Of a DNA stretch of 64,000 nucleotides, positions 21,025 to 35,850 are shown piece by piece (within the stretch, counting starts at the first letter, position 1; every line of letters begins with the position of its first letter). Location of the stretch: assembly GCF_024300625.1 (NCBI RefSeq), contig NZ_CP101322.1, positions 2,307,992 to 2,371,991 on the forward strand. Reading direction: 5' to 3'. This stretch comes from Halovivax gelatinilyticus (GTDB lineage Archaea; Halobacteriota; Halobacteria; Halobacteriales; Natrialbaceae). The notes under the pieces were generated by a model that made no database searches, had not been told where the DNA came from, and saw nothing but the letters and a program-made list of their open reading frames with translations. The position numbers and the translations under genes were made by a program.

Positions 21025-22815
21025 ATGCCGGGACAGCGTTCGCCGAAAGCGATGGTTCGCGATCGAATACTCCTCGCAGTCGGCTTTTTCGCACTAACGG
21101 GGGCGATCGTCGGCGCACACAGGTCGCCAGCGAGCGGGTACGAACTGTCGCTGTATTCGCACACGCCAACCGTCGTCTGGGTGCTTCTTGGACTGGCGAT
21201 CAGTCTCTCGCTGGCCGTCGCGGTCGCCACTGCCTCGATCTGGACGCGACGGGTTTCGCTCGGTCTCGGGGCCGGATCGACGCTGGCCGTCGTCGGAATG
21301 CCGGTCCTCAGAGGATACTGGTTCATCTCCGGTGGTGACGCTCACACCCACCTCGGCTGGGCGCGAGGAATGGCGGCGGCCGACTTTCACCCGGCCGAGC
21401 TCCGCTATCCCGGACTTCACACGACGACGATTCTCGTAGAGCGAATCCTCGGCATCGGCCTCGAACAGGCAATGATGCTGGTGATCCTCGCTCTGTGTGG
21501 GCTGTTCGTCGTCTTCGTCTCGCTCTCGACCTCGCGCGTCGTCGATTCCCACCGAAGCGTCGCAATCGGGGTGTTCTCGGCGTGTCTGTTTCTCCCAATC
21601 ACGAATCTGAGCACCTTCACGACGCCGCACCCGATGACCCAGGCGATCCTCGTCTCGTCGTTCGTCGTGTATCTCCTGCTTCGCTACATTCGAACCGAAC
21701 GGTCGGTCTCGGCGCTAGGGGGATTGCTCGCGCTCTCACTCCTCTCTCTGGTGCTCTATCACCCGCAACTGGCGGCCCACCTCCTCGTCGTGTTCGTTGG
21801 AATCTCTCTCGTTCAATTCTACCACCGGCGGGTTCGCCCGTCACACCCGGTTGCGTCACACCGACCGGTCTACGGGCAGACAGTCTTTCTCGGCGGGGCG
21901 TTTCTCGTCTGGTCTATGGGACACGACGTGATCCAGAACGTGATCGGCTTTCACCTCACCTCCACCTTCGAGTACTTCGTCGGCGACGGGGGATCGGCCG
22001 GAGATTCCGTCGATGCGCAGGGCGACTCGCTGACGGCGATCGGTGGAAGCGTCGCCGAAGTCGGATTGAAGCTCCTGGGTCCGGCGCTCGTCTTTTGCCT
22101 TCTCACCGCCGCTGTCGTGGTCTGGCTCTGGCTGGATGTCGGCGACCGATTTCGGCGCGAGACCGACGGGATGATCCACTACTTCGTCGTCGGGCTGATC
22201 GGGCTGAGCGGGCTCTTCGGCATCTACTTCTTCGGATCGGCCGGTCAGATGTACTTCCGTGTTCTCGGGCTCATGATGCTGTTTATCACTATCATCGGAG
22301 CGGTGGCGATTACCTACGCTGCAGACACCGTCTCCCGGATCACCGGATCGACGGCGGTCCACGGTGCTCTCGGCGTCGGGTTCGCGATCCTTCTCGTAGT
22401 GTCGTTGCTCGCGCTCTATCCGTCGCCGTACGTTTACAATCCCTCGACGCACGTAACCGAGGGATCGATGTCCGGTCACGAACTCGCCCTGGAGTCGACG
22501 CCCGCGGATGCGACGTTCGTCGGCATTCGAGCCGGGCCGAATCGATTCGCAGACGCGACGGACCCGCAACTCGACCGGACGAAACGACACGGCGCGATCA
22601 CCGGAGAGGAGATCGACGACGGCATCGCGAGCATCTACGACGAACCTCGCTATCTCAGCGTCACCCGACTGGACTGGGAACGAGAGGTGCGAACGTATCA
22701 GGGCTTGCGCTACTCGGACGAGCAGATCGAGTCCATTCCGCGGCAGGTGGGGGTCAACCGAATACAGACGAACGGCGACGTGACGATCTACTACGTCGAC
22801 GGACAGCAGGCCTGA
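21025..22815 (+). CDS. Polytopic membrane protein, possible GT-C-like glycosyltransferase
   Basis: A 596-residue protein with about 11-12 TM helices across residues 10-470 and a C-terminal soluble domain (about 480-596). An extracytoplasmic loop after the third helix holds GGDAHTHLGWARGMAAADF, acidic/His residues in the position where GT-C enzymes carry their catalytic Asp. Similar proteins in archaeal glycan clusters are annotated as membrane glycosyltransferases or unknown. The role could be transfer of a lipid-linked sugar outside the membrane (inference). No Wzy or AglB WWDYG motif is visible. Confidence 0.6.
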   Translation: MPGQRSPKAMVRDRILLAVGFFALTGAIVGAHRSPASGYELSLYSHTPTVVWVLLGLAISLSLAVAVATASIWTRRVSLGLGAGSTLAVVGMPVLRGYWFISGGDAHTHLGWARGMAAADFHPAELRYPGLHTTTILVERILGIGLEQAMMLVILALCGLFVVFVSLSTSRVVDSHRSVAIGVFSACLFLPITNLSTFTTPHPMTQAILVSSFVVYLLLRYIRTERSVSALGGLLALSLLSLVLYHPQLAAHLLVVFVGISLVQFYHRRVRPSHPVASHRPVYGQTVFLGGAFLVWSMGHDVIQNVIGFHLTSTFEYFVGDGGSAGDSVDAQGDSLTAIGGSVAEVGLKLLGPALVFCLLTAAVVVWLWLDVGDRFRRETDGMIHYFVVGLIGLSGLFGIYFFGSAGQMYFRVLGLMMLFITIIGAVAITYAADTVSRITGSTAVHGALGVGFAILLVVSLLALYPSPYVYNPSTHVTEGSMSGHELALESTPADATFVGIRAGPNRFADATDPQLDRTKRHGAITGEEIDDGIASIYDEPRYLSVTRLDWEREVRTYQGLRYSDEQIESIPRQVGVNRIQTNGDVTIYYVDGQQA

Positions 22816-22908: not shown

Positions 22909-25227
22909 TCAGGGGTGGTCGAGTTCCTCGCCGTCGACGGCGAGCGTGCGGATCTCGGTTTCGCCGTCGTGGTCGTCGATCTCGAGGCTCGTGATCTCGC
23001 CGGTGAACTCCCAGACGGTGCGGGCTTCGTCCGAGCCCGACAGCCACCACTCGGCCCAGTCGTCGCCGTAGGCCTCGCCTTCGGTGAGCCAGCGGGCGTG
23101 CGCCTCTGCGGGCTGAATGTCCCCCGAAACCTCGATCCGGTAGGCGAACTGGCCGGCGACTTCGAGTCGGTGCGGACCATGGTCTTCTTCGCTCTCGTCC
23201 GCGTTTTCGCCTTCGAGGTCGCCGCCGGTCCGTTCGATAAGTTCCTCCTCGCTCACCTCTTCGCCATCGAGTTCGATCCACATGGCGTCGGGTTGGTCGA
23301 CCGAGACGGCCTGGACGGGGCCGTGAACCTCGTAGGCGTCGCCGTGGCCACCGCCGGAGAGCGAGGCGACGGTCGAGAGACCGTCTTCCTCTTCGACGGT
23401 CTCGCGGTGGGCGGCGATGCGCCCGCCGGAGGGACTTTCGTAGGGCGCTTCGGTCGGGACGAGCTCACCCTCGACGGCGAGTTCGTACTCGGCGAGTTCG
23501 GCGTCGGGCTCGGTGACGAACGCGACGAGGTTCGCCTCCGGCGGTTCGTCCGGTTCGTCTTCATCGTCGCCGCTGGTCCGCTCGACGAGTTCTTCCTCGC
23601 TCACCCGCTCGCCGTTGAGTTCGATCCACATGACGTCGGGTTGGTCGACCGAGACGGCCTGGACGGGGCCGTGAACCTCGTAGGCGTCGCCGTGGCCACC
23701 GCCGGAGAGCGAGGCGACGGTCGAGAGACCGTCTTCCTCTTCGACGGTCTCGCGGTGGGCGGCGATGCGCCCGCCGGAGGGACTTTCGTAGGGCGCTTCG
23801 GTCGGGACGAGCTCACCCTCGACGGCGAGTTCGTACTCGGCGAGTTCGGCGTCGGGCTCGGTGACGAACGCGACGAGGTTCGCCTCCGGCGGTTCGTCCG
23901 GTTCGTCTTCATCGTCGCCGCTGGTCCGCTCGACGAGTTCTTCCTCGCTCACCCGCTCGCCGTTGAGTTCGATCCACATGACGTCGGGTTGGTCGACCGA
24001 GACGGCCTGGACGGGGCCGTGAACCTCGTAGGCGTCGCCGTGGCCACCGCCGGAGAGCGAGGCGACGGTCGAGAGACCGTCTTCCTCTTCGACGGTCTCG
24101 CGGTGGGCGGCGATGCGGCCGCCGGAGGGGCTCTCGTAGGGTGCTTCGGTCGGGATCAACTCGCCGTCGACGGCGAGTTCGTACTCGGCGAGTTCGGCGT
24201 CAGGTTCAGTGACGAACGCGACGAGGTGAGCGTCCTCAGGGAACTCCGGCTCGGGTTCGGGTTCCTCGCCGGCCGCGCGACCGCTGGCCGCTGCCTCGGC
24301 GCTCGTCGGGGCGCCGACGTCAGCTGGATCGGTTCGTGGATTGCCGGACGGTGAACCCCTGACATACGACGAACACGAACCGTCGACGGTTCTCGAGACG
24401 TTCGCCCGGCAGTTGTCGAGCGTGAGCTGACTGCACGAGAACGTGTTAGACCACGTGCCGCTGCCATTGTTCCACCCGACGTACTCCGGAGCGTAGACGT
24501 CGCAATTGATGAACTCGACGCCCGCCGAGAAGTAATCGCGAAACGCACGTGGCGTCCCTTTCTGCTGGGGGCCGTCGAGGACGCTGATACAATTGTTGCA
24601 GTACGATCCGTCGGAACCGAGGCGGAAGTTCCACCCGCAGTTTTCGATGTAACTGTCGTAGATGCGAACCGTCCCGCCATCACCCGTCGAGGGGTGGCCG
24701 GGTGGCGAGCCAGGATCGGACGCGTAGATGCCGTTGTCGGGCATCTGGGCGATGTAGGCGTTTCGGATCTCGAGATCGCCTGCGTGATCGTTGTGAACGT
24801 AAATTCCCGTCGGGTTGCCCCAGCTGTGATAGCCGGGCGACTCGGCGCCGGGCAGGTGGATATTCTCGATGCGGATTTTCCCGCTCGAACTCGGCGCACG
24901 AACGGTGAACGGACTCGACGAGGGTTCGTGATCCCACAGCCCTCGGACACCGACGTTTCGGATTGTGGTGTCGTTTCTGTGACAGCGGATGGCGTAGCCC
25001 GCCCCGTCGGCCGTGATATCGATTATCTTGTTCTCCCAGGTTTCGCCCGCCGAGAGCCGTTTGGTGTACGTTTCTCCTGGTCCGACTTCGATTACGTCGT
25101 AGTCGTCGTTGGAAGCCGCTCCGTTCATCGCGAGCGCCGCGACGCCTGTCGCACTCAACGCGGCCTTCAAATACGTTCGGCGATCGAACAGGGTCGCCGG
25201 ATATCGTTCGTTGGAGTCCTCATTCAT
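22909..25227 (-). CDS. Tat-exported beta-helix protein with three A modules and one B module
   Basis: A 772-residue secreted protein. The Tat signal RRTYLKAALSATGVAALA lies near residue 17. Residues about 40-300 form a right-handed parallel beta-helix, pectate-lyase-like (TIRNVGVRGLWDH, GIYVHNDHAGDLEIRNAYI, DNGIYASDPG). Then follow a Glu/Pro linker, three A modules starting near residues 332, 448 and 564 (each 116 residues, LVAFVTEPDAELAEYEL), and one B module from about 686 to the end (LEVAGQFAYRIEVSG, WAEWWLSGSDEARTVWEF). Modules 1 and 2 differ at only three residues. Paralogues at 29190 and 30632 combine the same modules differently. Likely a surface glycan-binding or lyase protein. Confidence 0.85.
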   Translation of the reverse strand: MNEDSNERYPATLFDRRTYLKAALSATGVAALAMNGAASNDDYDVIEVGPGETYTKRLSAGETWENKIIDITADGAGYAIRCHRNDTTIRNVGVRGLWDHEPSSSPFTVRAPSSSGKIRIENIHLPGAESPGYHSWGNPTGIYVHNDHAGDLEIRNAYIAQMPDNGIYASDPGSPPGHPSTGDGGTVRIYDSYIENCGWNFRLGSDGSYCNNCISVLDGPQQKGTPRAFRDYFSAGVEFINCDVYAPEYVGWNNGSGTWSNTFSCSQLTLDNCRANVSRTVDGSCSSYVRGSPSGNPRTDPADVGAPTSAEAAASGRAAGEEPEPEPEFPEDAHLVAFVTEPDAELAEYELAVDGELIPTEAPYESPSGGRIAAHRETVEEEDGLSTVASLSGGGHGDAYEVHGPVQAVSVDQPDVMWIELNGERVSEEELVERTSGDDEDEPDEPPEANLVAFVTEPDAELAEYELAVEGELVPTEAPYESPSGGRIAAHRETVEEEDGLSTVASLSGGGHGDAYEVHGPVQAVSVDQPDVMWIELNGERVSEEELVERTSGDDEDEPDEPPEANLVAFVTEPDAELAEYELAVEGELVPTEAPYESPSGGRIAAHRETVEEEDGLSTVASLSGGGHGDAYEVHGPVQAVSVDQPDAMWIELDGEEVSEEELIERTGGDLEGENADESEEDHGPHRLEVAGQFAYRIEVSGDIQPAEAHARWLTEGEAYGDDWAEWWLSGSDEARTVWEFTGEITSLEIDDHDGETEIRTLAVDGEELDHP
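23205..24235 (-). repeat. Three in-frame tandem repeats of 348 bp (A modules)
   Basis: The unit encodes 116 residues and repeats with a period of exactly 348 bp at about 24235-23888, 23887-23540 and 23539-23205 (minus strand). Large stretches are identical at DNA level between copies, including synonymous positions, which indicates recent duplication or ongoing gene conversion. A fourth, more diverged copy lies in the paralogue at 30632-32515. Confidence 0.9.
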
Positions 25228-25673: not shown

Positions 25674-27137
25674 ATGACCGAACGGGGGCGCTTGCGCTCT
25701 CGCTTTACGTTCGAGTTTGGCGGTCGAATACTCGCGACCACAGCTGGCGGTCTACTGATGGTCGTACTCGCGAGGTTGCTTGGACCCGAGGATTACGGGC
25801 TTCTATTCCTCGCGATCGCCGTGTTCGGTGTGTTGGGGGTGGCTAGCAAACTCGGAATTGCGAAATCCTGTGCCAGATACGTCGCCGAGTACAAAGAGTC
25901 AGATCCAGCGCAACTACCGCACATTCTCCGTGTCGCTCTACTGTTCAATGTAGGCGCCGTCGTCACCGTCTGTGTCGCCCTCTTGATCGGTCACCGACAC
26001 CTGGCTGCGTTCCTCGACGAGCCGTCGTTGACGCCGTTGTTGTTGCTCGGTCTGGGGTACCTCGTCTTCGAGGCGCTGGCGACGTTTGCCAGGCTCGTGT
26101 TGCAGGGGTTAGAGGAGATCGAACTCGCCGCGACCGTCCACGTGACCAATCGAATCACTCGGCTCATCTTCGTCGTCGGGTTCGCCGTCCTCGGTTTCGG
26201 CGCTCTCGGCGCCCTCGTTGGCTACATTATGAGTTTCGCCATCTCGTCGCTGCTCGGCCTCTGGCTCGTCTATCGCTACTGTCTGCGAGGCATCGAACCG
26301 GCGACCTCAGTCGAATCCGGGCTGAAACGCCGCATCGGTGAATACACCGTGCCACTGACGGCGACGAGTACGGCGAACGTCCTCGACAAGCAAATCGACA
26401 CCGTCCTCGTAGGCCTGTTTCTCTCGCCGATCGCCGTCTCCGCGTACGTCCTCAGCAAACAGATCGTCGAATTCCTCGAGGCACCCGTTTCGGCGCTCGG
26501 GTTCACCCTTTCGCCCACGTTTGCCGCGCAGAAAGCCGACGGGAATACGGATCGGGCAGCGCGCCTCTACGAAACCGCGCTCACTCATGCGTTGTTACTG
26601 TACGTGCCCGCCGCGGCTGGACTCGTCCTCGTCGCTGAACCAACTATCACCCTCGTCTTCGGGTCCGACTATCTGGGCGCGGTTCCCGTATTGCAGGTGC
26701 TCTCGCTGTACGCGATCTTGTTGTCCGTCACGAAGATAACGAGCAACGCGCTCGATTTCCTCGGGCGTGCGAAGGCTCGAGCGATCGTTAAGGGTTCGAC
26801 GGCCCTGTTGAACGTCGCCTTGAACCTCGTGTTGATCCCGCTGATCGGCGTCGTCGGCGCCGCAATCGCCACGGTGATCACCTACTCGATCTACACCGGG
26901 GCGAATCTCTATATTATCCACCGGGAACTCGATTTGCGCCTCGGACTGGTCGCCCGAAGAACCGGGGCGATCATCGGTGTGGCTGCGGTGATGACCGGTA
27001 CCATCTACCCGATGTACGGTAGCATCGATGGCTGGCCATCCCTACTTGGAGTCGTCCTGTTCGGTGTCGTCGTGTGGGCGCTGTGCTCACAACTGGCCGG
27101 ACTCCTCGAACTTCCACGAACCCAGATCAACTCATGA
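25674..27137 (+). CDS. Oligosaccharide flippase, MATE/Wzx-like (paralogue 1)
   Basis: A 487-residue polytopic membrane protein of the polysaccharide-biosynthesis (Wzx/RfbX) family, with about 12-14 TM helices. Conserved segments are ARLLGPEDYGLLFLAIAVFG near the N-terminus, SCARYVAEYKESD after the second helix, and PLTATSTANVLDKQIDTVLVG at the start of the second half. It should flip a lipid-linked glycan across the membrane. The stop overlaps the ATG of the next gene by 4 bp (ATGA), so the two are translationally coupled. A paralogue is at 34381-35850. Confidence 0.85.
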   Translation: MTERGRLRSRFTFEFGGRILATTAGGLLMVVLARLLGPEDYGLLFLAIAVFGVLGVASKLGIAKSCARYVAEYKESDPAQLPHILRVALLFNVGAVVTVCVALLIGHRHLAAFLDEPSLTPLLLLGLGYLVFEALATFARLVLQGLEEIELAATVHVTNRITRLIFVVGFAVLGFGALGALVGYIMSFAISSLLGLWLVYRYCLRGIEPATSVESGLKRRIGEYTVPLTATSTANVLDKQIDTVLVGLFLSPIAVSAYVLSKQIVEFLEAPVSALGFTLSPTFAAQKADGNTDRAARLYETALTHALLLYVPAAAGLVLVAEPTITLVFGSDYLGAVPVLQVLSLYAILLSVTKITSNALDFLGRAKARAIVKGSTALLNVALNLVLIPLIGVVGAAIATVITYSIYTGANLYIIHRELDLRLGLVARRTGAIIGVAAVMTGTIYPMYGSIDGWPSLLGVVLFGVVVWALCSQLAGLLELPRTQINS

Positions 27138-29020
27138 CACAAACGTATCCCTTCACGACCGAACGTGCGGACCGACCATCCACCGAAATACTCGTCTGCC
27201 CGGACTGTTCGGACCGTGTTTCACTCCGACAGCAATCCTGTACGGGTTGTGAGACGACGGTGATCGATCTCCAGGGCGTTATCTCGTTCACCGAGGACGA
27301 CCATCGTGGAGATGTTCCCGATCACGATGTCGACCTCGCTTCGTTTACCGACGCGCTCCGATCGAACTCGATGCGCACGGCCATCGACCACGTCGCTATC
27401 GACGCCAGTGAGTGCGAGACGTTCCTGACAGATCTCCTTGACGTCCGCCGCGACGTCTGGCACGCGCTCGTAGACGGCCACATTAGTGGACGCTGTCTCG
27501 ATCTCTACGCAGGGTACGGTCGACGTTCGATTGCCCTTTCGGCGCGTGCTGAATCCGTCCACGCTGTCGATCCGTCCCTGTCGAAACTCACGATCGCCTC
27601 GCTACGCGAAGACGCACCGAGGCACAGTCGTATCGTCCCGGTACACACCGAACTGAACCGGTTACCGTTCGCCCCGGCTTCATTCGATACCATCGTCGTG
27701 GATCTCTCGGGCCGATCGAACGTGAAAGAGACGCTACGGGAGCTTTCGCCCTATCTCAGAGACGGCGGCTCTCTCCTCGCTATCGTGGATGGCTGGTCGA
27801 AGAGAACCGGGATCGCGTCACTTGCGGGTCTCGTGAGCGACGAGGTACGTCTGTCGAGTGGCGTGCGTCCCGGAACGCCGAGCGGCTATCGATCCGTTGC
27901 GTCCGATCTCGGCTTCGACGCGTGTTCCGTCTATGCGCTATTCCCGAGCGCGTCGCGCCCACTCTACGCGTACGAAGTCGGCTGTGACCGTGCGTCCCGG
28001 TGGCTGTTCGAATCGGAACTGCCGAATCGGGATCGACTCGCATCGGCGATCGATCCGGTTCTTCCGCTGGTCCGGAACAGCGGCATTCTCGAAGGGAGCC
28101 TGCCGAGTTACCTCCTCGCGTGCTCGAAGACGCCGACACGCGACGCTCCGTCGAGATTCGACGCACCGGTTGCTGTTGCTGGTCGCGCCCGATCCGTCGT
28201 TCTCGACGTCGGGGTAGACGGTATCACCGACGTCTGGAAGCTTCCGAATCGTCCCGGACACGCACTGCTCACGGAGCGGGAAAATTCGCTGTTGTGGCGG
28301 CTCCACGAACTAGATGTCGACGTGACCGAGACGCTTCCCGATGGCGAACCGGTCGAGTCTCCGATCGGAGTAGCCCGCCACGAACGTCCTGTTCGTGGGC
28401 GGCCGCTCGACGAGTCACTCGCCGATCACCCCGACGACTTCGAACAGGTCCTCGAAACCGGATACGAGTGGCTAGCGTCGTTCCAGCGAACCGTTCGCGG
28501 TGACTCGATCGAACGATCACCGACGTCGGTTCGTGACGAACTCTCATTCGACCCCGCCGGCGTGGACCCGCCCCAGATCGAGACACCCGTTGTAACGTTC
28601 GAAACGCCGATTCATGGCGACTTCATCGCCCGTAACATCCACGTCGAGAACGGATCGATAACCGGCGTAATCGATTGGGAGTACGGTATTCCAGACGGGT
28701 GTCCGGTCGTCGATGCGGGCCGTCTCTTGATAGATGCGGCCCTTCAGACCGTTGGCGACTTCGATGGGGCTGTTCGCACCGTACTCTGTGGGGATACCGA
28801 GTACGCAGTTCGAGCGAGAGCGGCCGTTCAGGAGTACTGTGATGCGGTCGATCTGCCATACCGAACCTTCGAACGGTGTCTTCCGGCGACGTACGTCCAC
28901 CGCCTCGAACTCGACTTCCAGGTCGATGCCCCGAGCACGTACGGGTCGCGCGTGGCGGAGCGAGCCCGACGCGCGCAACGTCTCGCCGACTCTGTGGGAG
29001 AGATGACACTATCGGTGTGA
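27134..29020 (+). CDS. Zinc ribbon-methyltransferase-APH-type kinase fusion
   Basis: A 628-residue three-domain protein. Residues about 22-39 form a zinc ribbon (CPDC ... CTGC). Residues about 115-270 are a class I SAM-dependent methyltransferase: CLDLYAGYGRRSIALSA (motif I, about 121-137), HAVDPSLSK (motif II), FDTIVVDLSG and YLRDGGSLLAIVDG. The C-terminal half, from about 350, is an aminoglycoside phosphotransferase/choline-kinase-like domain with the Brenner motif HGDFIARN (about 494-501) and GVIDWEYG (about 512-519). The ATG overlaps the flippase stop by 4 bp. A methyltransferase plus kinase in one chain recalls bacterial WbdD, which caps O-antigen chains with a methylphosphate; this role is inferred. 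An ATG further upstream (27074) is less likely. Confidence 0.75.
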   Translation: MTQTYPFTTERADRPSTEILVCPDCSDRVSLRQQSCTGCETTVIDLQGVISFTEDDHRGDVPDHDVDLASFTDALRSNSMRTAIDHVAIDASECETFLTDLLDVRRDVWHALVDGHISGRCLDLYAGYGRRSIALSARAESVHAVDPSLSKLTIASLREDAPRHSRIVPVHTELNRLPFAPASFDTIVVDLSGRSNVKETLRELSPYLRDGGSLLAIVDGWSKRTGIASLAGLVSDEVRLSSGVRPGTPSGYRSVASDLGFDACSVYALFPSASRPLYAYEVGCDRASRWLFESELPNRDRLASAIDPVLPLVRNSGILEGSLPSYLLACSKTPTRDAPSRFDAPVAVAGRARSVVLDVGVDGITDVWKLPNRPGHALLTERENSLLWRLHELDVDVTETLPDGEPVESPIGVARHERPVRGRPLDESLADHPDDFEQVLETGYEWLASFQRTVRGDSIERSPTSVRDELSFDPAGVDPPQIETPVVTFETPIHGDFIARNIHVENGSITGVIDWEYGIPDGCPVVDAGRLLIDAALQTVGDFDGAVRTVLCGDTEYAVRARAAVQEYCDAVDLPYRTFERCLPATYVHRLELDFQVDAPSTYGSRVAERARRAQRLADSVGEMTLSV

Positions 29021-29189: not shown

Positions 29190-30398
29190 TCAGACCGGAT
29201 CGATCGATTCGCCGTCGACGGCGAGCGTGCGGATCTCGGTTTCGCCGTCGTGATCGTCGATCTCGAGGGTGGTGATCTCGCCGGTGAACTCCCAGGCGGT
29301 CCGGGCTTCGTCCGACCCGGAGAGCCACCACTCGGCCCAGTCGTCGCCGTAGGCGTCTCCTTCTTCGAGCAACTCGGCGTGTTCTGCGGCCGGACGAATC
29401 TTCTCAGTGACCTCGATTCGGTAGGCGAATTGTCCTGCGACGTCGAGCGTTCGAGGCTCGTGAGGGTCTTCGACCCCACCGCCGTTCGCCGCTTCTTCGG
29501 CCGTCCGCGGACAGCCCTCGGGGATGGAGTCCCACGGCACGCCCGCCGAGGTCCCGCTGACGCTCGACGATCTCGCGCCGCCGTGGGCGGTTTCTGACTC
29601 CCATCGCGCATCGACCATCGTCAGCGAGGCGTCGTCGGATTTGTTCCAGACGGCGTCGCCGAGTGCGAGGTCGCTCTCGTGTCCGCCGATGTCACAGTCG
29701 ACGATCTCGGCGTCCTCGTAAAACTGCCAGTGCCCGCGCTGGGAGCCGCCCGCGGCGCAGCTGTTCTCGAGCGTCGACCCGCGGGTTCCGAGCCGAAAGT
29801 TCGAGACGTCGTTGTTCTTCGCGTAGGAATTTCTGATCGCGACCGTCCCGCCAGCCCCGGGGATCGGGTGCTGGTTCGAATTTCCCGGTCCGGAGGCGTA
29901 GATGCCGTTGTCGGTCCAGTTCTGGACGTTGACACGGTCTATCTCCAGGTGACCGGCGTGGTCCCAGTAGACGTAGAGACCGGTCGCGTTCCCGTCCCCG
30001 CAGGTGACGTCGAGACAGACGTTCTCGATGGTTCCCGTCCCGTCTGGATCGGTCACCCGAGCGCGAAACGGTTCTGCGTGTCCACCCTCGAAGTGGCCGG
30101 TGATTCCGACGTTGCGGATCGTCCAGTCGGTTCCGTCGGCCTGGATGTCGTAGACGGCCCCGGGTTCGGAGATGTCGATCAGGACGTTCTCCCACGTTTC
30201 ACCGCTTCCGACGGTCTTTCGGAACGTTTCGCCGGCGCCCACGGTGATCGTCTCGTAGTCCGTCGCGGCGGCGACTCGCCCGCTCGCCCCGTTCAACAGT
30301 CCGAACGATCCCAGCATCGCACCGGCGCCGAGAAGGTATCCGCGTCGACTCGTTTCACGTGTGTCAGTACGTCGATCGGTCGCGTCAGCTTCGTCCAT
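29190..30398 (-). CDS. Tat-exported beta-helix protein with one B module
   Basis: A 402-residue paralogue of the proteins at 22909 and 30632, the shortest of the three. The twin-arginine signal is SRRGYLLGAGAMLGSFGLL near residue 18. The beta-helix spans about residues 45-290 (TIRNVGITGHFEGGH, GIYASGPGNSNQHP, NFRLGTRGSTLENS). A single B module runs from about residue 314 (LDVAGQFAYRIEVTEKI) to the end (ETEIRTLAVDGESIDPV). The ATG at 30398 is preferred over GTG 30422 because it gives a normal Tat n-region. A TATA-like GCAATATACC (minus strand) lies near 30452-30461. Confidence 0.8.
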   Translation of the reverse strand: MDEADATDRRTDTRETSRRGYLLGAGAMLGSFGLLNGASGRVAAATDYETITVGAGETFRKTVGSGETWENVLIDISEPGAVYDIQADGTDWTIRNVGITGHFEGGHAEPFRARVTDPDGTGTIENVCLDVTCGDGNATGLYVYWDHAGHLEIDRVNVQNWTDNGIYASGPGNSNQHPIPGAGGTVAIRNSYAKNNDVSNFRLGTRGSTLENSCAAGGSQRGHWQFYEDAEIVDCDIGGHESDLALGDAVWNKSDDASLTMVDARWESETAHGGARSSSVSGTSAGVPWDSIPEGCPRTAEEAANGGGVEDPHEPRTLDVAGQFAYRIEVTEKIRPAAEHAELLEEGDAYGDDWAEWWLSGSDEARTAWEFTGEITTLEIDDHDGETEIRTLAVDGESIDPV

Positions 30399-30631: not shown

Positions 30632-32515
30632 TCAGGGACGGTCGAGTTCCTCGCCGTCGACGGCGAGCGTTCGAATCTCGGTCTCTCCGTCGTAGTCGTC
30701 GATCTGGAGGTTCGTTATATCGCCCGTGAACTCCCAGACGGTTCGCGCCTCGTCCGAGCCCGACAGCCACCACTCCGCCCAGTCGTCGCCGTAGGCATCG
30801 CCCTCGGAGAGCCACTGCGCGTGGGCGTCAGTCGGTCGAATCTCGCCGGAGACGTCGACGCGATATTCGAACTGGCCGGCGACTTCGAGTCGGTGCGGGC
30901 CATCGTCCTCTTCGACGTACTCGCTGTGGTCGAGTTCCTCGCCGTCGATGGCGAGCGTGCGGATCTCGGTTTCGCCGTCGTGATCGTCGATCTCGAGAGT
31001 CGTGATCTCGCCGGTGAACTCCCAGACCGTCCGTGCCTCGTCCGAACCGGAGAGCCACCACTCGGCCCAGCCGTCGCCGTAGGCGTCTCCTTCCTGAAGC
31101 CAGCGGGCGTGCGCCTCGGCGGGCTGAATCTCGCCAGAGACCTCGATCCGGTATTCGAACTGACCGGCGACCTCGAGGGTGGACGGTCCGTCGTCTTCGT
31201 CCTCGTCGCCGCCAGTTCGCTCGATCAGCTCTCCCTCGCTCACCCGTTCGCCGTCGAGTTCGATCCACATGGCGTCGGGCTGGTCGACGGTGACGTCGCG
31301 GACGGGACCGTGAACCTCGTAGGCGTCGCCGTGGCCGCCGCCCGATAGCGAGGCGACGGTCGAGAGGCCGTCCTCTTCTTCGACGGTCTCGCGGTGGGCG
31401 GCGATGCGGCCACCGGAGGGACTCTCGTAGTGTGCTTCGGTCGGAACCAACTCGCCGTCGACGGCCAGTTCGTACTCGGCGAGTTCGGCGTCGGGTTCGG
31501 TGACGAACGCGACGAGGTGGGCGTCCTCGGGCAACTCCGGCTCCGGTTCGGGTTCTTCGCTGGCCGAGCCACCGTTCGCGGCCGCTTCGGCGCTCGTCGG
31601 ACAACCCGCCGGGACGCGATCTCGGGGGCTTCCGACCGACGAGCCGTTGATGTTCGAACGCGTGTTGCCGCCGTGGGCGGCTTCGGTCTCCCACCGCGAC
31701 CCGGTGAGCGAGACGCGCGCCCTGTCGGCTTTCGACCACGCCGAGTCGCCGACGGCGACGTCGCTGCCGTTCGATCCCAGGTCGGAGTCGTACACGTCGG
31801 TCTCCTCGTAGGCGGCCCACAGCCCGCGGTGGCGGCCGCCGACGGCCACGCAGTTGTCGAGGTACGAACCCGTGCTGCCGAGTCGGTACGCGGACGTGTT
31901 GCAGTCTTTGACGTAGGAGTTAGAGATGTGGACCTCGCCGCCGTGACCGGGGGTCGGGTGCGCGCTGGAGTTACCCGGCTCGCTCGCGTAGAAGCCGTTG
32001 TCCGGGAAGTTCTGCATGTAGATGCGATCCATCTCGAGGGTGCCGACGTGGTTCGGCCAGACGTAGATACCCGTCTCGCCGTGGTGTTCGCCCGAACTAC
32101 GCCGCGTTCGGGTCGTCACCTCGAAGCAGACGTTCTCGATCACGCCGGTGCCATTCGAATCGGTTACGCGCACCCTGAACGGGTCTTCGTTCCGGCCCGT
32201 ATCTTCCAGGTGGCCGCGGATGCCGACGTTCCTGATCGCCCAGTTCGAACCGGACGCGCTGATGTCGTAGCGCGCGCCGGATGCGGAGACATCGAGCAGG
32301 ACGTTCTCCAGTGTGTCACCGCTACCGAGTCGAATCGTGTGGGTCTGGCCGGACGGAACGACGATCTCCTCGTATCCGTCGTCGCCCGACGCCGCGGCGC
32401 TTCCCGCGTTCAGGAGAGCGAGCGAGCCGATGAGCGAGCCAGCACCGAGTAAGTACGATCGACGGCTGGTTTCGTTCCCGACCGACTGTCGGTCGGACGA
32501 GTGTGTCTCTTTCAT
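30632..32515 (-). CDS. Tat-exported beta-helix protein with one A and two B modules
   Basis: A 627-residue paralogue. Tat signal SRRSYLLGAGSLIGSLALL near residue 18. Beta-helix at about residues 45-310 (AIRNVGIRGHLED, GIYVWPNHVGTLEMDRI, DNGFYASEPGNSSAHP). A Glu/Pro linker is followed by an A module from about 332, then two B modules from about 443 and 541. The A module begins at the same residue number as in the 772-residue protein, so the N-terminal part is colinear and only the tail differs. The ATG at 32515 is preferred to the upstream start at 32560, which lies within the putative promoter (TATA-like CTATATAAG, complement of 32569-32577). Confidence 0.85.
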   Translation of the reverse strand: MKETHSSDRQSVGNETSRRSYLLGAGSLIGSLALLNAGSAAASGDDGYEEIVVPSGQTHTIRLGSGDTLENVLLDVSASGARYDISASGSNWAIRNVGIRGHLEDTGRNEDPFRVRVTDSNGTGVIENVCFEVTTRTRRSSGEHHGETGIYVWPNHVGTLEMDRIYMQNFPDNGFYASEPGNSSAHPTPGHGGEVHISNSYVKDCNTSAYRLGSTGSYLDNCVAVGGRHRGLWAAYEETDVYDSDLGSNGSDVAVGDSAWSKADRARVSLTGSRWETEAAHGGNTRSNINGSSVGSPRDRVPAGCPTSAEAAANGGSASEEPEPEPELPEDAHLVAFVTEPDAELAEYELAVDGELVPTEAHYESPSGGRIAAHRETVEEEDGLSTVASLSGGGHGDAYEVHGPVRDVTVDQPDAMWIELDGERVSEGELIERTGGDEDEDDGPSTLEVAGQFEYRIEVSGEIQPAEAHARWLQEGDAYGDGWAEWWLSGSDEARTVWEFTGEITTLEIDDHDGETEIRTLAIDGEELDHSEYVEEDDGPHRLEVAGQFEYRVDVSGEIRPTDAHAQWLSEGDAYGDDWAEWWLSGSDEARTVWEFTGDITNLQIDDYDGETEIRTLAVDGEELDRP

Positions 32516-32830: not shown

Positions 32831-34300
32831 ATGAGTGAACGTGATCCCAACGTATTCGTCCTGACCGTCGACTCGCTTCGGTGGGACGCCTACGATCGAT
32901 TGATGTCTGAGGTCGGCGAGGTCGTCCCGGGCACGACGTTCACCCGGGCGTTCGCGACGGCGAGCAACACCGGGAGTTCGATGCCGACGCTGGCGGCGGG
33001 CGTCTACTGCGACGAAGTGGCCGACGGCACGCCGAACCTGGACCTCGGCGAGACGAGCGAGGACGACGGCCTCACGACGCTTGCCGAGGCGCTCTCGGCG
33101 GCCGGATACGACGCCTCCCTCTGGAGTGACAACGTCATCTTCGGCGAGGCGCGAAACTACGATCGGGGCTTTAGCGACGGTCGGACCGGGACGCCGAGCT
33201 GGAAGAAGCGCGCGCAGACCGTCGTCCAGGGAACCGGCTCGGCTCGGCTGTTCAACGCCTGTCGCTGGGCGTACTTCAACGTCTTCGACCGAATCGAATC
33301 GACCCTCTCCTCGAATTCCAGCTACTACGTCCCGGCGAAAACGCACCACCAATCGGTTCTCGACGCGCTCTCGGGAACGGACGGCGGCCAGGCTCACTGG
33401 ATCCACTACATGGACGTCCACCACCCGTTCGAACCGCCCGCCGAGTACCTGGCCAAGCGTGATCTCAACGCGCCGCGGCGGCCGGCGGAACTCGCGGAAC
33501 TCTCCTCGTCTGCCATCATCCAGAACGCGGGCGGCGAGACGACGCACGGGGACGTCGAAGACATCGAGCAGGCCTACCTGGCCGCATGCGAACACCTCCG
33601 CGACGAACTCGTCTCGTTCGTCGAGACGCTTCGCGACCGGGGTCACTACGACCCGGGCCACGACGTGCTGGTACTCACCGCAGACCACGGCGAGGGGTTC
33701 GACCGCGACCTCCACGGCATGCTCGGGCACACGCCGACCCCGGCGTTCTGGGACGACCTCGTCCACGTCCCGCTGCTCGTCTCGCTTCCCGACTGGGAGC
33801 ACGAGCGGGTCGACTACCAGGTGAGTCTGATCGACGTCGTCCCGACGATTCTGTCTGCGCTCTCCCTGTCGGTTCCGGACTCGTGTCAGGGCGTGGCCGC
33901 CTCGTCACCAGCGGAGCTCCACCGCTCGCACGTCTACTTCACGGCGACCGGTCCCTACCGATCCTATCACGGCGTTCGTAACGAACACGGCTGGAAGCTG
34001 TTCGCCGACCGCATCAGCGAGTCGAGCGGGATCGAACTCATGGGGACCGACGAGCGCGACGACCACGAACGCGTCCTGCTCACGACGGTCGACGACGGCG
34101 AGGAGACGATCCGCTACGAGCGATCGCTCGACGAAGATGGGGTGCCGACGGAATCGACGGCGTCGACGCGCTGGCGCGGCTTACACGAACGGCTGTCCGA
34201 CCAGCGCGGCGGGGTCGCCACTCGACGGTTCGACGCCCAGCTCTCGGCGGAGACCGTCGAACAGTTAGAACAGCTCGGCTACGTCGACAACGTCCGGTGA
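32831..34300 (+). CDS. Sulfatase-like alkaline phosphatase superfamily protein without the usual sulfatase motif
   Basis: A 489-residue protein of the sulfatase/phosphoglycerol-transferase branch. It begins FVLTVDSLRWDAYD (metal-site Asp), has VLTADHGEGFDRDLHGMLGHT for the second metal site and a late VSLIDVVPTILSALSL. True sulfatases have C/S-x-P-x-R for formylglycine formation; here the segment is SNTGSSMPTLAAG, without the Arg and with a Ser/Thr nucleophile. A phosphotransferase or phosphodiesterase role on a surface polymer is more likely than sulfate removal. No signal peptide is seen. It is followed by a flippase gene 80 bp downstream. Confidence 0.8.
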   Translation: MSERDPNVFVLTVDSLRWDAYDRLMSEVGEVVPGTTFTRAFATASNTGSSMPTLAAGVYCDEVADGTPNLDLGETSEDDGLTTLAEALSAAGYDASLWSDNVIFGEARNYDRGFSDGRTGTPSWKKRAQTVVQGTGSARLFNACRWAYFNVFDRIESTLSSNSSYYVPAKTHHQSVLDALSGTDGGQAHWIHYMDVHHPFEPPAEYLAKRDLNAPRRPAELAELSSSAIIQNAGGETTHGDVEDIEQAYLAACEHLRDELVSFVETLRDRGHYDPGHDVLVLTADHGEGFDRDLHGMLGHTPTPAFWDDLVHVPLLVSLPDWEHERVDYQVSLIDVVPTILSALSLSVPDSCQGVAASSPAELHRSHVYFTATGPYRSYHGVRNEHGWKLFADRISESSGIELMGTDERDDHERVLLTTVDDGEETIRYERSLDEDGVPTESTASTRWRGLHERLSDQRGGVATRRFDAQLSAETVEQLEQLGYVDNVR

Positions 34301-34380: not shown

Positions 34381-35850
34381 ATGCCGATCAGCACCGAACA
34401 GATTCGAGATATCAAGGCGTCGTTCGTCGCTCGAATCGTCCACACGGTGACGAACGGGCTCCTCGTCGTCGCGCTCGCGAGTTACCTCCTCGGACCCGAC
34501 GAGTACGGATTGCTGTTTCTGGTACTCTCGATACTGGTGGTGGCGCAGGTGTTCGCCGACCTGGGCGTCTCCCGATCGGCCGCGCGGTACGTCTCGGAGT
34601 ACAAGGAGACCGATCCCGGACAGGTTCCACACATCGTCCGCGTCTCGCTCGCGTTTCGGGTGATGATGCTCGCCGTCGTCTGTCTCGCGGTCGTACTCGC
34701 CCGACCGTGGATCGCGGCGGTGCTCGACGAACCCGCGCTGGCCTCGTTGCTCGTCGTCGGCGTCTGCTACCTGGCGTTCAAGTCGCTGACGGCCTACCAC
34801 GTCGGCCTCTTTCAGGGATTCAGTCGACTCGAGTACAGCGCGGCGGTCGGCATCGTCGACAACGTCGGCCGACTCGTCTTCGTCGTCGGGTTCGTCGCCC
34901 TCGGCTTCGGGGTGGTCGGAGCGCTCGCCGGCTACGTCGTCGGGGCGGTGCTCGCGACGGCGCTCGGGCTCGCGATCCTGTACTGGAAGTGCTACCGCCC
35001 CTGCGAGCGAGCCGAACGGGCGGAGCCCGGACTCAAACGCCGCATCCTCGAGTACAGCGTCCCGCTGACGGCCTCCGAGAGTGCGAACGTCGTCGATCGC
35101 CGGGTCGACATTCTCCTGGTCGGGTTCTTCCTGACGCCGGCCGCCGTGGGATTCTACACCCTCGCAAAGCAGATCACGGAGTTCGTCGAGGCGCCCGCGG
35201 GCTCCGTCGGGTTCGCCCTCTCGCCGGCCTACGGCGAGGAGAAGGCGAGAGATCGACTCGATCACGCGGCCCGGATCTACGAAACCTCGTTCTCGTACGT
35301 CCTCTTGCTGTACGTTCCGGCAGCCGTCGGCATGGTCCTGCTCGCCGAACCGGGGATCACGATCGTCTTCGGCGACGAGTACGCCGGAGCGGTGCCCGTC
35401 CTCCAGATACTCTCGCTCTTCGTGCTCTTTAAGGCGATAAACAGCATCACGACCCAGTCGATCGACTACCTCGGTCGCGCCAGAACGCGCGCCATCGTCA
35501 AGGGCATCACCGCCGCGGGGAACGTCGCGTTGAACATCGTGCTCATCCCGACGATGGGCCTCGTCGGGGCGGCGATCGCGACCGTCGTGACGTTCGGCGC
35601 CTACACGCTGGCGAACGTCGCCATCATGCACGCCGAGTTGCCGATCCGAACGAAACGGTTCGTCGGCGTCGCCGCGGGCACGACGGCCATCTCGATCCTG
35701 ATGGGCTTTGTCGTCCTCGCGCTCGCACCGTTCATCTCCGGCTACCTCACGCTGTTCGGCGTCGTCGGCGTCGGCGTCGGGATCTGGGCGGCGCTCGTCA
35801 CCGCGACCGGCCTGGTCGACCTGCGCGAATCGATCGCGACCTTCGTCTGA
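34381..35850 (+). CDS. Oligosaccharide flippase, MATE/Wzx-like (paralogue 2)
   Basis: A 489-residue polytopic membrane protein closely similar to the flippase at 25674-27137: SYLLGPDEYGLLFLVLSIL, RSAARYVSEYKETDPGQVPH and PLTASESANVVDRRVDILLVG correspond segment by segment. About 12-14 TM helices. It should translocate a lipid-linked glycan. It lies in a same-strand run with the sulfatase-like gene upstream and the DUF354 gene downstream. Two flippases in one region suggest two lipid-linked substrates or a recent duplication. Confidence 0.85.
   Translation: MPISTEQIRDIKASFVARIVHTVTNGLLVVALASYLLGPDEYGLLFLVLSILVVAQVFADLGVSRSAARYVSEYKETDPGQVPHIVRVSLAFRVMMLAVVCLAVVLARPWIAAVLDEPALASLLVVGVCYLAFKSLTAYHVGLFQGFSRLEYSAAVGIVDNVGRLVFVVGFVALGFGVVGALAGYVVGAVLATALGLAILYWKCYRPCERAERAEPGLKRRILEYSVPLTASESANVVDRRVDILLVGFFLTPAAVGFYTLAKQITEFVEAPAGSVGFALSPAYGEEKARDRLDHAARIYETSFSYVLLLYVPAAVGMVLLAEPGITIVFGDEYAGAVPVLQILSLFVLFKAINSITTQSIDYLGRARTRAIVKGITAAGNVALNIVLIPTMGLVGAAIATVVTFGAYTLANVAIMHAELPIRTKRFVGVAAGTTAISILMGFVVLALAPFISGYLTLFGVVGVGVGIWAALVTATGLVDLRESIATFV

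What the first reader, a model, noticed from the sequence alone, without database searches (positions are those of the whole stretch)
25674..29020. Flippase coupled to a zinc ribbon-methyltransferase-kinase fusion: possible archaeal glycan chain terminator
The stop of an oligosaccharide flippase overlaps the ATG of a 628-residue protein by 4 bp. That protein has a SAM methyltransferase domain (motifs I, II, IV and V visible) followed by an APH-type kinase domain with intact HGDFIARN and IDWEYG motifs. In E. coli, WbdD joins a methyltransferase and a kinase and ends polymannan O-antigen chains by adding a methylphosphate, fixing chain length. A similar domain order beside a flippase suggests an archaeal enzyme that phosphorylates and methylates the end of a glycan before export. 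WbdD works with an ABC exporter and carries a coiled coil, neither seen here, so homology in function is an inference.
Basis: partly seen in the sequence, partly recalled or inferred. Interest (0 to 1): 0.75.

Follow-up and report, generated by a model that had tools for sequence, protein, structure and literature searches.

The report
Archaeal flippase-paired methyltransferase-kinase fusion
In salt-loving archaea, a sugar-chain flippase gene is repeatedly found next to a gene for one protein that joins a methyl-adding domain to a phosphate-adding (kinase) domain, which suggests that surface sugar chains are phosphorylated, and sometimes methylated, just before export; no experiment has tested this.

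Summary
A MOP-type flippase (25674-27137) overlaps by 4 bp (ATGA) a 628-aa protein (27134-29020) with a C4 zinc ribbon, a class I SAM methyltransferase (MTase) and an APH-family kinase. The pairing is not chance: the flippase is the next gene in 18 of 27 full-length homologues from 392 haloarchaeal genomes, and 10 of the 11 flippases most like this one (121 family genomes) adjoin a fusion. In 34 homologues every kinase catalytic residue is invariant. The SAM glycine motif is lost in nine, in at least four changes on the kinase tree, including this genome's own paralogue, and the zinc ribbon is absent from 15. The family is therefore a kinase first, with optional methylation. WbdD is the wrong yardstick: the kinase gives no sequence match to it, and the coiled coil and Wzt_C exporter are absent. 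A better analogue is the Klebsiella O7 terminator (MTase plus AmiN-like kinase), proven to add methylphosphate. Best reading: a dedicated pre-flipping glycan kinase/methylase. Terminal capping and length control are possible but unshown. I rate it a new archaeal, flippase-coupled variant of a known kind.

The parts
25674..27137 (+). MOP/Wzx-type oligosaccharide flippase, 487 aa
   Evidence: Pfam Polysacc_synt_3/Polysacc_synt/MurJ; next to the fusion in 18 of 27 homologous loci
27134..27137 (+). 4-bp stop/start overlap (ATGA) between flippase and fusion, suggesting translational coupling
   Evidence: sequence; the same overlap in L036 and L037
27134..29020 (+). Zinc ribbon - SAM methyltransferase - APH-type kinase fusion, 628 aa
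27197..27250 (+). C4 zinc ribbon, residues 22-39 (CPDC...CTGC); a C4-type motif is found in 19 of 34 homologues
   Evidence: sequence; model aligns from residue 19 with RlmA(I)
27446..28135 (+). Class I SAM methyltransferase domain, about residues 105-334; motif I LDLYAGYG at 122-129, acidic D146
   Evidence: Pfam Methyltransf_25/11; VIA Z 14.7 to RlmA(I) 1p91
28145..29017 (+). APH-type kinase domain, residues 338-628; K369, H494-G495-D496, N501, D514-W515-E516
   Evidence: Pfam APH; domain model pLDDT 90.9; VIA Z 15.7 to APH(3')-Ia; catalytic residues invariant in 34 of 34
21052..22815 (+). Multi-TM (about 13) DUF6541-like protein, recurrent neighbour, function unknown
   Evidence: 9 of 26 fusion loci; annotated DUF6541 upstream of the pair in Halomontanus rarus; Pfam DUF6541 only E 0.08
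22909..25227 (-). Tat-signal, probably beta-helix secreted protein, recurrent neighbour
   Evidence: cluster present in 13 of 26 loci; orthologous neighbours annotated right-handed parallel beta-helix
29190..30317 (-). Second protein of the same secreted beta-helix family
30632..32515 (-). Third protein of the same secreted beta-helix family

Best explanation
The pair is a dedicated glycan modify-and-flip module. On the cytoplasmic face the fusion's APH-type kinase phosphorylates a hydroxyl of a lipid-linked glycan. In proteins whose SAM site is intact, as here, the N-terminal methyltransferase then adds a methyl group, most simply to that phosphate, as in the Klebsiella O7 terminator. The co-translated flippase then moves the modified glycan across the membrane. 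Shown here: intact kinase and MTase folds and motifs, conserved gene coupling with one flippase lineage, and kinase conservation with repeated loss of the SAM site. Inferred: that the substrate is a lipid-linked glycan, that the site is terminal, the order of the reactions, and that modification precedes flipping.
For: Both active sites are intact in the window protein. The kinase model matches small-molecule and sugar APH kinases, including amicoumacin kinase hAmiN (Z 13.8); AmiN was also the nearest DALI relative of the proven O7 methylphosphate-terminator kinase (PMC11231755). A flippase is adjacent in 18 of 27 homologues. Of the 11 flippases most like this one, 10 adjoin a fusion, against 8 of the next 138 listed (Fisher p 4e-10). 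ATGA overlaps occur in three loci. Neighbours include glycosyltransferases, a deacetylase, WecB, GNATs and a sulfatase fold. Kinase catalytic residues are invariant in 34 of 34 while the SAM motif is lost in nine, which fits kinase-first, methyl-optional chemistry; O7 methylation was also incomplete in vitro. Haloarchaea have a precedent for modification at the non-reducing end before export: transient methylation of the dolichyl-linked glycan in Halobacterium is needed for glycosylation (PMC4335974).
Against: No substrate, product or glycan structure is known. APH-fold kinases act on many small molecules, and fold does not set the substrate. Nine of 27 fusions have no adjacent flippase, and the deep MTase-minus clade sits in different clusters with an initiating sugar transferase. 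Some paired loci carry few glycosyltransferases nearby; none is annotated in the stretch shown around the Halomontanus pair.
Confidence: 0.5

Rival explanations
1. A strict WbdD-like chain terminator and length ruler: the fusion caps the non-reducing end of a polysaccharide with methylphosphate, which fixes its length and licenses export.
For: Same MTase-kinase order; intact SAM and kinase sites in the window protein; co-translated exporter.
Against: No extended coiled coil (last helix 605-627); no Wzt_C ABC exporter in the genome; the kinase is APH-type, not eukaryotic-like (PMC3482155); the SAM site is lost repeatedly.
Confidence: 0.2
2. Precursor enzyme: the kinase is a sugar (for example anomeric) kinase and the MTase methylates a sugar, so the protein makes an activated or methylated building block rather than modifying the finished glycan.
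For: APH-fold kinases include small-sugar kinases such as maltokinase (Z 13.3) and methylthioribose kinase (Z 13.6); the MTase fold is generic.
Against: Tight coupling with one flippase lineage points to the export step; a precursor enzyme would be expected to pair with nucleotidyltransferases or glycosyltransferases.
Confidence: 0.15
3. Phosphocholine-type decoration: choline/ethanolamine kinase plus phosphoethanolamine N-methyltransferase.
For: LicA choline kinase aligns over 236 residues (Z 15.2); PMT-type N-methyltransferases are among the Foldseek hits of the MTase.
Against: No LicD phosphocholine transferase in the genome; PMT hits are mixed with many unrelated class I MTases.
Confidence: 0.06
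4. Small-molecule or antibiotic modification and export: an APH-like resistance kinase and an RlmA-like MTase next to a MATE/MOP transporter.
For: The best folds are APH(3') and RlmA(I).
Against: The transporter scores best as Polysacc_synt flippase; neighbours are glycan and cell-surface genes; these folds are shared by many non-resistance enzymes.
Confidence: 0.04

Closest known systems
Klebsiella pneumoniae O7 ORF6 N-terminal methyltransferase-kinase (PMC11231755)
   Same: N-terminal MTase followed by a kinase whose nearest structural relative is AmiN (APH group); glycan assembly cluster; experimentally adds phosphate and then methyl to terminal rhamnose.
   Different: O7 enzyme has a carbohydrate-binding domain, coiled coil and C-terminal GT modules, and works with an ABC exporter; the archaeal protein has a zinc ribbon instead and is paired with a flippase.
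E. coli O9a WbdD (PMC3482155)
   Same: MTase then kinase on one chain, in a glycan export setting.
   Different: WbdD's kinase is eukaryotic-like, with a coiled-coil ruler and ABC exporter; none of these was found here.
APH phosphotransferase family (PF01636)
   Same: Passes the Pfam cut-off; HGDxxxxN and IDWE motifs; APH fold, Z 15.7.
   Different: Fused to an MTase and paired with a flippase; only the catalytic region matches the profile; substrate unknown.
RlmA(I) 23S rRNA methyltransferase (1p91)
   Same: Zinc ribbon plus class I MTase fold, Z 14.7 over residues 19-334.
   Different: 16% identity; attached kinase and glycan-type context; no evidence for RNA as substrate.
Halobacterium salinarum transient methylation of dolichyl-linked glycan (Lechner 1985, cited in PMC4335974)
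   Same: Haloarchaeal modification at the non-reducing end of a lipid-linked glycan needed before or at export.
   Different: No phosphorylation reported; the proposed enzyme is an AglP homologue, not a kinase fusion.

Membership tests
WbdD chain terminators | N-terminal SAM MTase followed by a kinase in one chain | tested here: met
WbdD chain terminators | Kinase related to WbdD's eukaryotic-like kinase | tested here: inconclusive
   A profile of the kinase domain lists 27 PDB sequences at E up to 1, mostly APH/Mph/methylthioribose-kinase type, none named WbdD; structural rows are APH-type, but absence from that list does not exclude
WbdD chain terminators | C-terminal extended coiled-coil ruler | tested here: not met
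   The kinase reaches residue about 593 and the only element after it is helix 605-627
WbdD chain terminators | Paired ABC exporter with glycan-recognition domain (Wzt_C) | tested here: not met
   PF14524 has no match in the genome
WbdD chain terminators | Adds methylphosphate to the non-reducing glycan end | not testable with these tools
   needs biochemistry
Klebsiella O7 ORF6-type terminators | MTase plus AmiN/APH-like kinase | tested here: met
   hAmiN 6sum Z 13.8, 237 aligned, rmsd 4.3; fold level only
Klebsiella O7 ORF6-type terminators | Sequence orthology to ORF6-N | not tested
Klebsiella O7 ORF6-type terminators | Coiled coil and carbohydrate-binding module after the kinase | tested here: not met
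APH phosphotransferases (PF01636) | Pfam score over cut-off and catalytic HGDxxxxN / D(W)E residues | tested here: met
   26.3 bits against 23.2; invariant in 34 of 34 homologues
Class I SAM methyltransferases | Fold and SAM-binding glycine motif | tested here: met
   Methyltransf_25 33.5 bits against 27; G127 and G129 and D123/D146 present in the window protein; lost in nine relatives
MOP/Wzx flippases | Polysacc_synt family membership | tested here: met
   Polysacc_synt_3 99.6 bits

The most novel reading that the evidence does not exclude
Archaea cap lipid-linked surface glycans with phosphate or methylphosphate before a MOP flippase moves them, so that the cap acts as an export licence. 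This would carry the terminator principle known from bacterial ABC-exporter pathways over to flippase pathways, with lineages that dispense with the methyl step.
Probability: 0.28. Interest if true: 0.75.

Novelty: new variant of a known kind. Interest (0 to 1): 0.52.

Why it matters
To my knowledge, kinase-methyltransferase capping has been characterised only in bacterial glycans exported by ABC transporters. A conserved archaeal kinase-MTase fusion tied to one flippase lineage suggests that glycan phosphorylation before flipping may be a widespread haloarchaeal strategy. It would provide a genetic handle on the long-standing observation that a lipid-linked glycan must be chemically modified before it crosses the halobacterial membrane. 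It also shows a bifunctional enzyme whose MTase half is repeatedly dispensable while the kinase never is.

Tried and rejected
WbdD kinship: no WbdD entry in the complete 27-row kinase-profile list at E up to 1, nor in the shown rows of the whole-protein profile or of the structural comparisons; a missing structural row does not exclude it. Phosphocholine pathway: no LicD in the genome. Viral origin or carriage: no relative in viral contigs. The 13-TM neighbour: no PDB relative, only a sub-threshold DUF6541 hit in Pfam. Secreted beta-helix neighbours: no PDB relative by profile. Literature: none of the searches turned up a paper on this fusion or on its pairing with a flippase (open-access PMC only). 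NCBI names the Halomontanus homologue only 'phosphotransferase'. My simple gene caller gave poor calls in L043, L046 and L051, so open frames were used there.

Full report
Observation. The flippase ORF 25674-27137 and the 628-codon ORF 27134-29020 overlap as ATGA. Pfam assigns the first to Polysacc_synt_3/Polysacc_synt (E about 1e-27) and the second to Methyltransf_25 (122-212, E 7.2e-8) and APH (490-532, E 7.6e-6). The zinc-ribbon cysteines are C22, C25, C36 and C39.

Structure. AlphaFold2 with nine sequences gave mean pLDDT 83.9 and pTM 0.85; the kinase domain alone gave 90.9 and 0.90. Second-look structural alignment of the full model ranks RlmA(I), itself a zinc-ribbon MTase, first over residues 19-334 (Z 14.7, rmsd 7.0, 232 aligned), and APH(3')-Ia for residues 338-593 (Z 13.6, rmsd 3.3, 212 aligned). 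The kinase model alone aligns with APH(3')-Ia (Z 15.7), LicA (15.2), macrolide kinases (about 14) and amicoumacin kinase hAmiN (13.8). A kinase profile against PDB sequences returns 27 rows at E up to 1, mostly APH, Mph and methylthioribose-kinase type, with no WbdD. No long coiled coil follows the kinase.

Distribution. The own genome (3.7 Mb) holds the fusion and one paralogue, 28% identical. In 392 genomes of the order, about two dozen carry a full-length homologue; in 121 genomes of the family, 28 have a match at E up to 1e-20. Two loci are the same contigs as named records, Natrinema mahii and Natronosalvus hydrolyticus, which suggests that the family is Natrialbaceae. No viral relatives were found.

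Pairing with the flippase. A flippase is the next gene in 18 of 27 fusion genes from the order sample, upstream on the same strand in 15. Two further loci from the species collection (L063, L069) and Halomontanus rarus plasmid NZ_CP119800.1 show the same order. With 8 flippases in this genome the chance expectation is about 0.4% per fusion (related loci are not independent, so the binomial figure there is only indicative). The flippase lineage is specific: of the 11 non-self flippases above 580 bits, 10 adjoin a fusion, against 8 of the next 138 listed (one of these a fusion remnant), Fisher p 4e-10 (counts made by eye from the tables). The ATGA overlap recurs in L036 and L037.

Which half matters. 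Across 34 full-length homologues, K369, H494-G495-D496, N501 and D514-W515-E516 are invariant. The SAM glycine motif is destroyed in nine (L032, L040, L044, L053, L054, L055 twice, L056, L071) and altered at one glycine in a few more. On a kinase-domain tree this needs at least four changes (quick tree, many weak forks). A C4-type zinc ribbon is found in 19 of 34. In L040/L044 the MTase domain is decaying (33% pairwise identity against 58% for the kinase). In clade B (L032, L053, L055, L056) it stays as conserved as the kinase (51% against 46%) despite lacking the motif, and a Bac_transf gene lies nearby in all four. So phosphorylation is the constant activity and methylation is optional. In four genomes of another family (L057-L060) a zinc-ribbon MTase gene and a kinase gene lie side by side, overlapping by 4 bp: the unfused form.

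Context. The window cluster holds GT4, GT2 and DUF354-like glycosyltransferase candidates, a polysaccharide deacetylase, WecB, GNAT/FemAB-like acetyltransferases, a formyltransferase, a sulfatase-fold gene and a second flippase. Recurrent partners are a 13-TM DUF6541-like protein (9 of 26 loci) and Tat-secreted proteins probably of beta-helix type (13 of 26). Halomontanus shows the core: DUF6541 - two hypotheticals - flippase - fusion - beta-helix - hypothetical - deacetylase - beta-helix.

Comparison. WbdD phosphorylates and then methylates the terminal mannose, has a eukaryotic-like kinase and a coiled-coil domain (PMC3482155), and works with an ABC exporter; two of these features were tested and not met. 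The Klebsiella O7 ORF6-N enzyme combines an MTase with an AmiN-like kinase and was shown in vitro to add phosphate and then methyl, with incomplete methylation (PMC11231755); it is the better functional model, at fold level only. In Halobacterium a transient methyl group at the non-reducing end of the dolichyl-linked glycan is needed for glycosylation (PMC4335974), so modification tied to export has a haloarchaeal precedent, though without a kinase.

Verdict. Best explanation: a flippase-coupled glycan kinase with optional methylation (0.5). Methylphosphate capping as an export licence is possible (0.28). Strict WbdD membership is rejected on two tested features. The function remains inferred throughout.

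Noticed in passing
L032 8965-10728 (own genome, G000:C1 about 510.9-512.7 kb); L053, L055, L056: Paralogue clade with a pseudo-methyltransferase: SAM glycine motif replaced by a conserved GTHDES-like motif, yet the domain is as conserved as the kinase, with a Bac_transf initiating sugar transferase nearby in all four. What it binds is unknown.
   Followed up: partly
L057 8450-10443, L058 8998-11000, L059 9139-11120, L060 8980-10898: Zinc-ribbon MTase and APH kinase as two adjacent genes with a 4-bp overlap, an unfused form of the same pair, with the DUF6541-like gene nearby.
   Followed up: partly
window 22909-25227, 29190-30317, 30632-32515 (- strand): Three Tat-signal proteins of one probable beta-helix family flank the pair and recur in half of the homologous loci; possible glycan-acting surface enzymes.
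   Followed up: partly
window 32831-34300 and 34381-35850: A sulfatase-fold gene sits next to a second flippase; in Halobacterium such sulfatase-fold proteins were shown to be glycan sulfotransferases (PMC11980604).
   Followed up: no
L061 9925-10215 (- strand): Remnant of the fusion (only part of the kinase region) next to an intact paired-type flippase: apparent gene decay with the flippase kept.
   Followed up: partly
L071 1794-3296: A divergent homologue on a short contig binned as Nitriliruptoraceae (bacterium) from soda-lake sediment; possible mis-binning or transfer.
   Followed up: no
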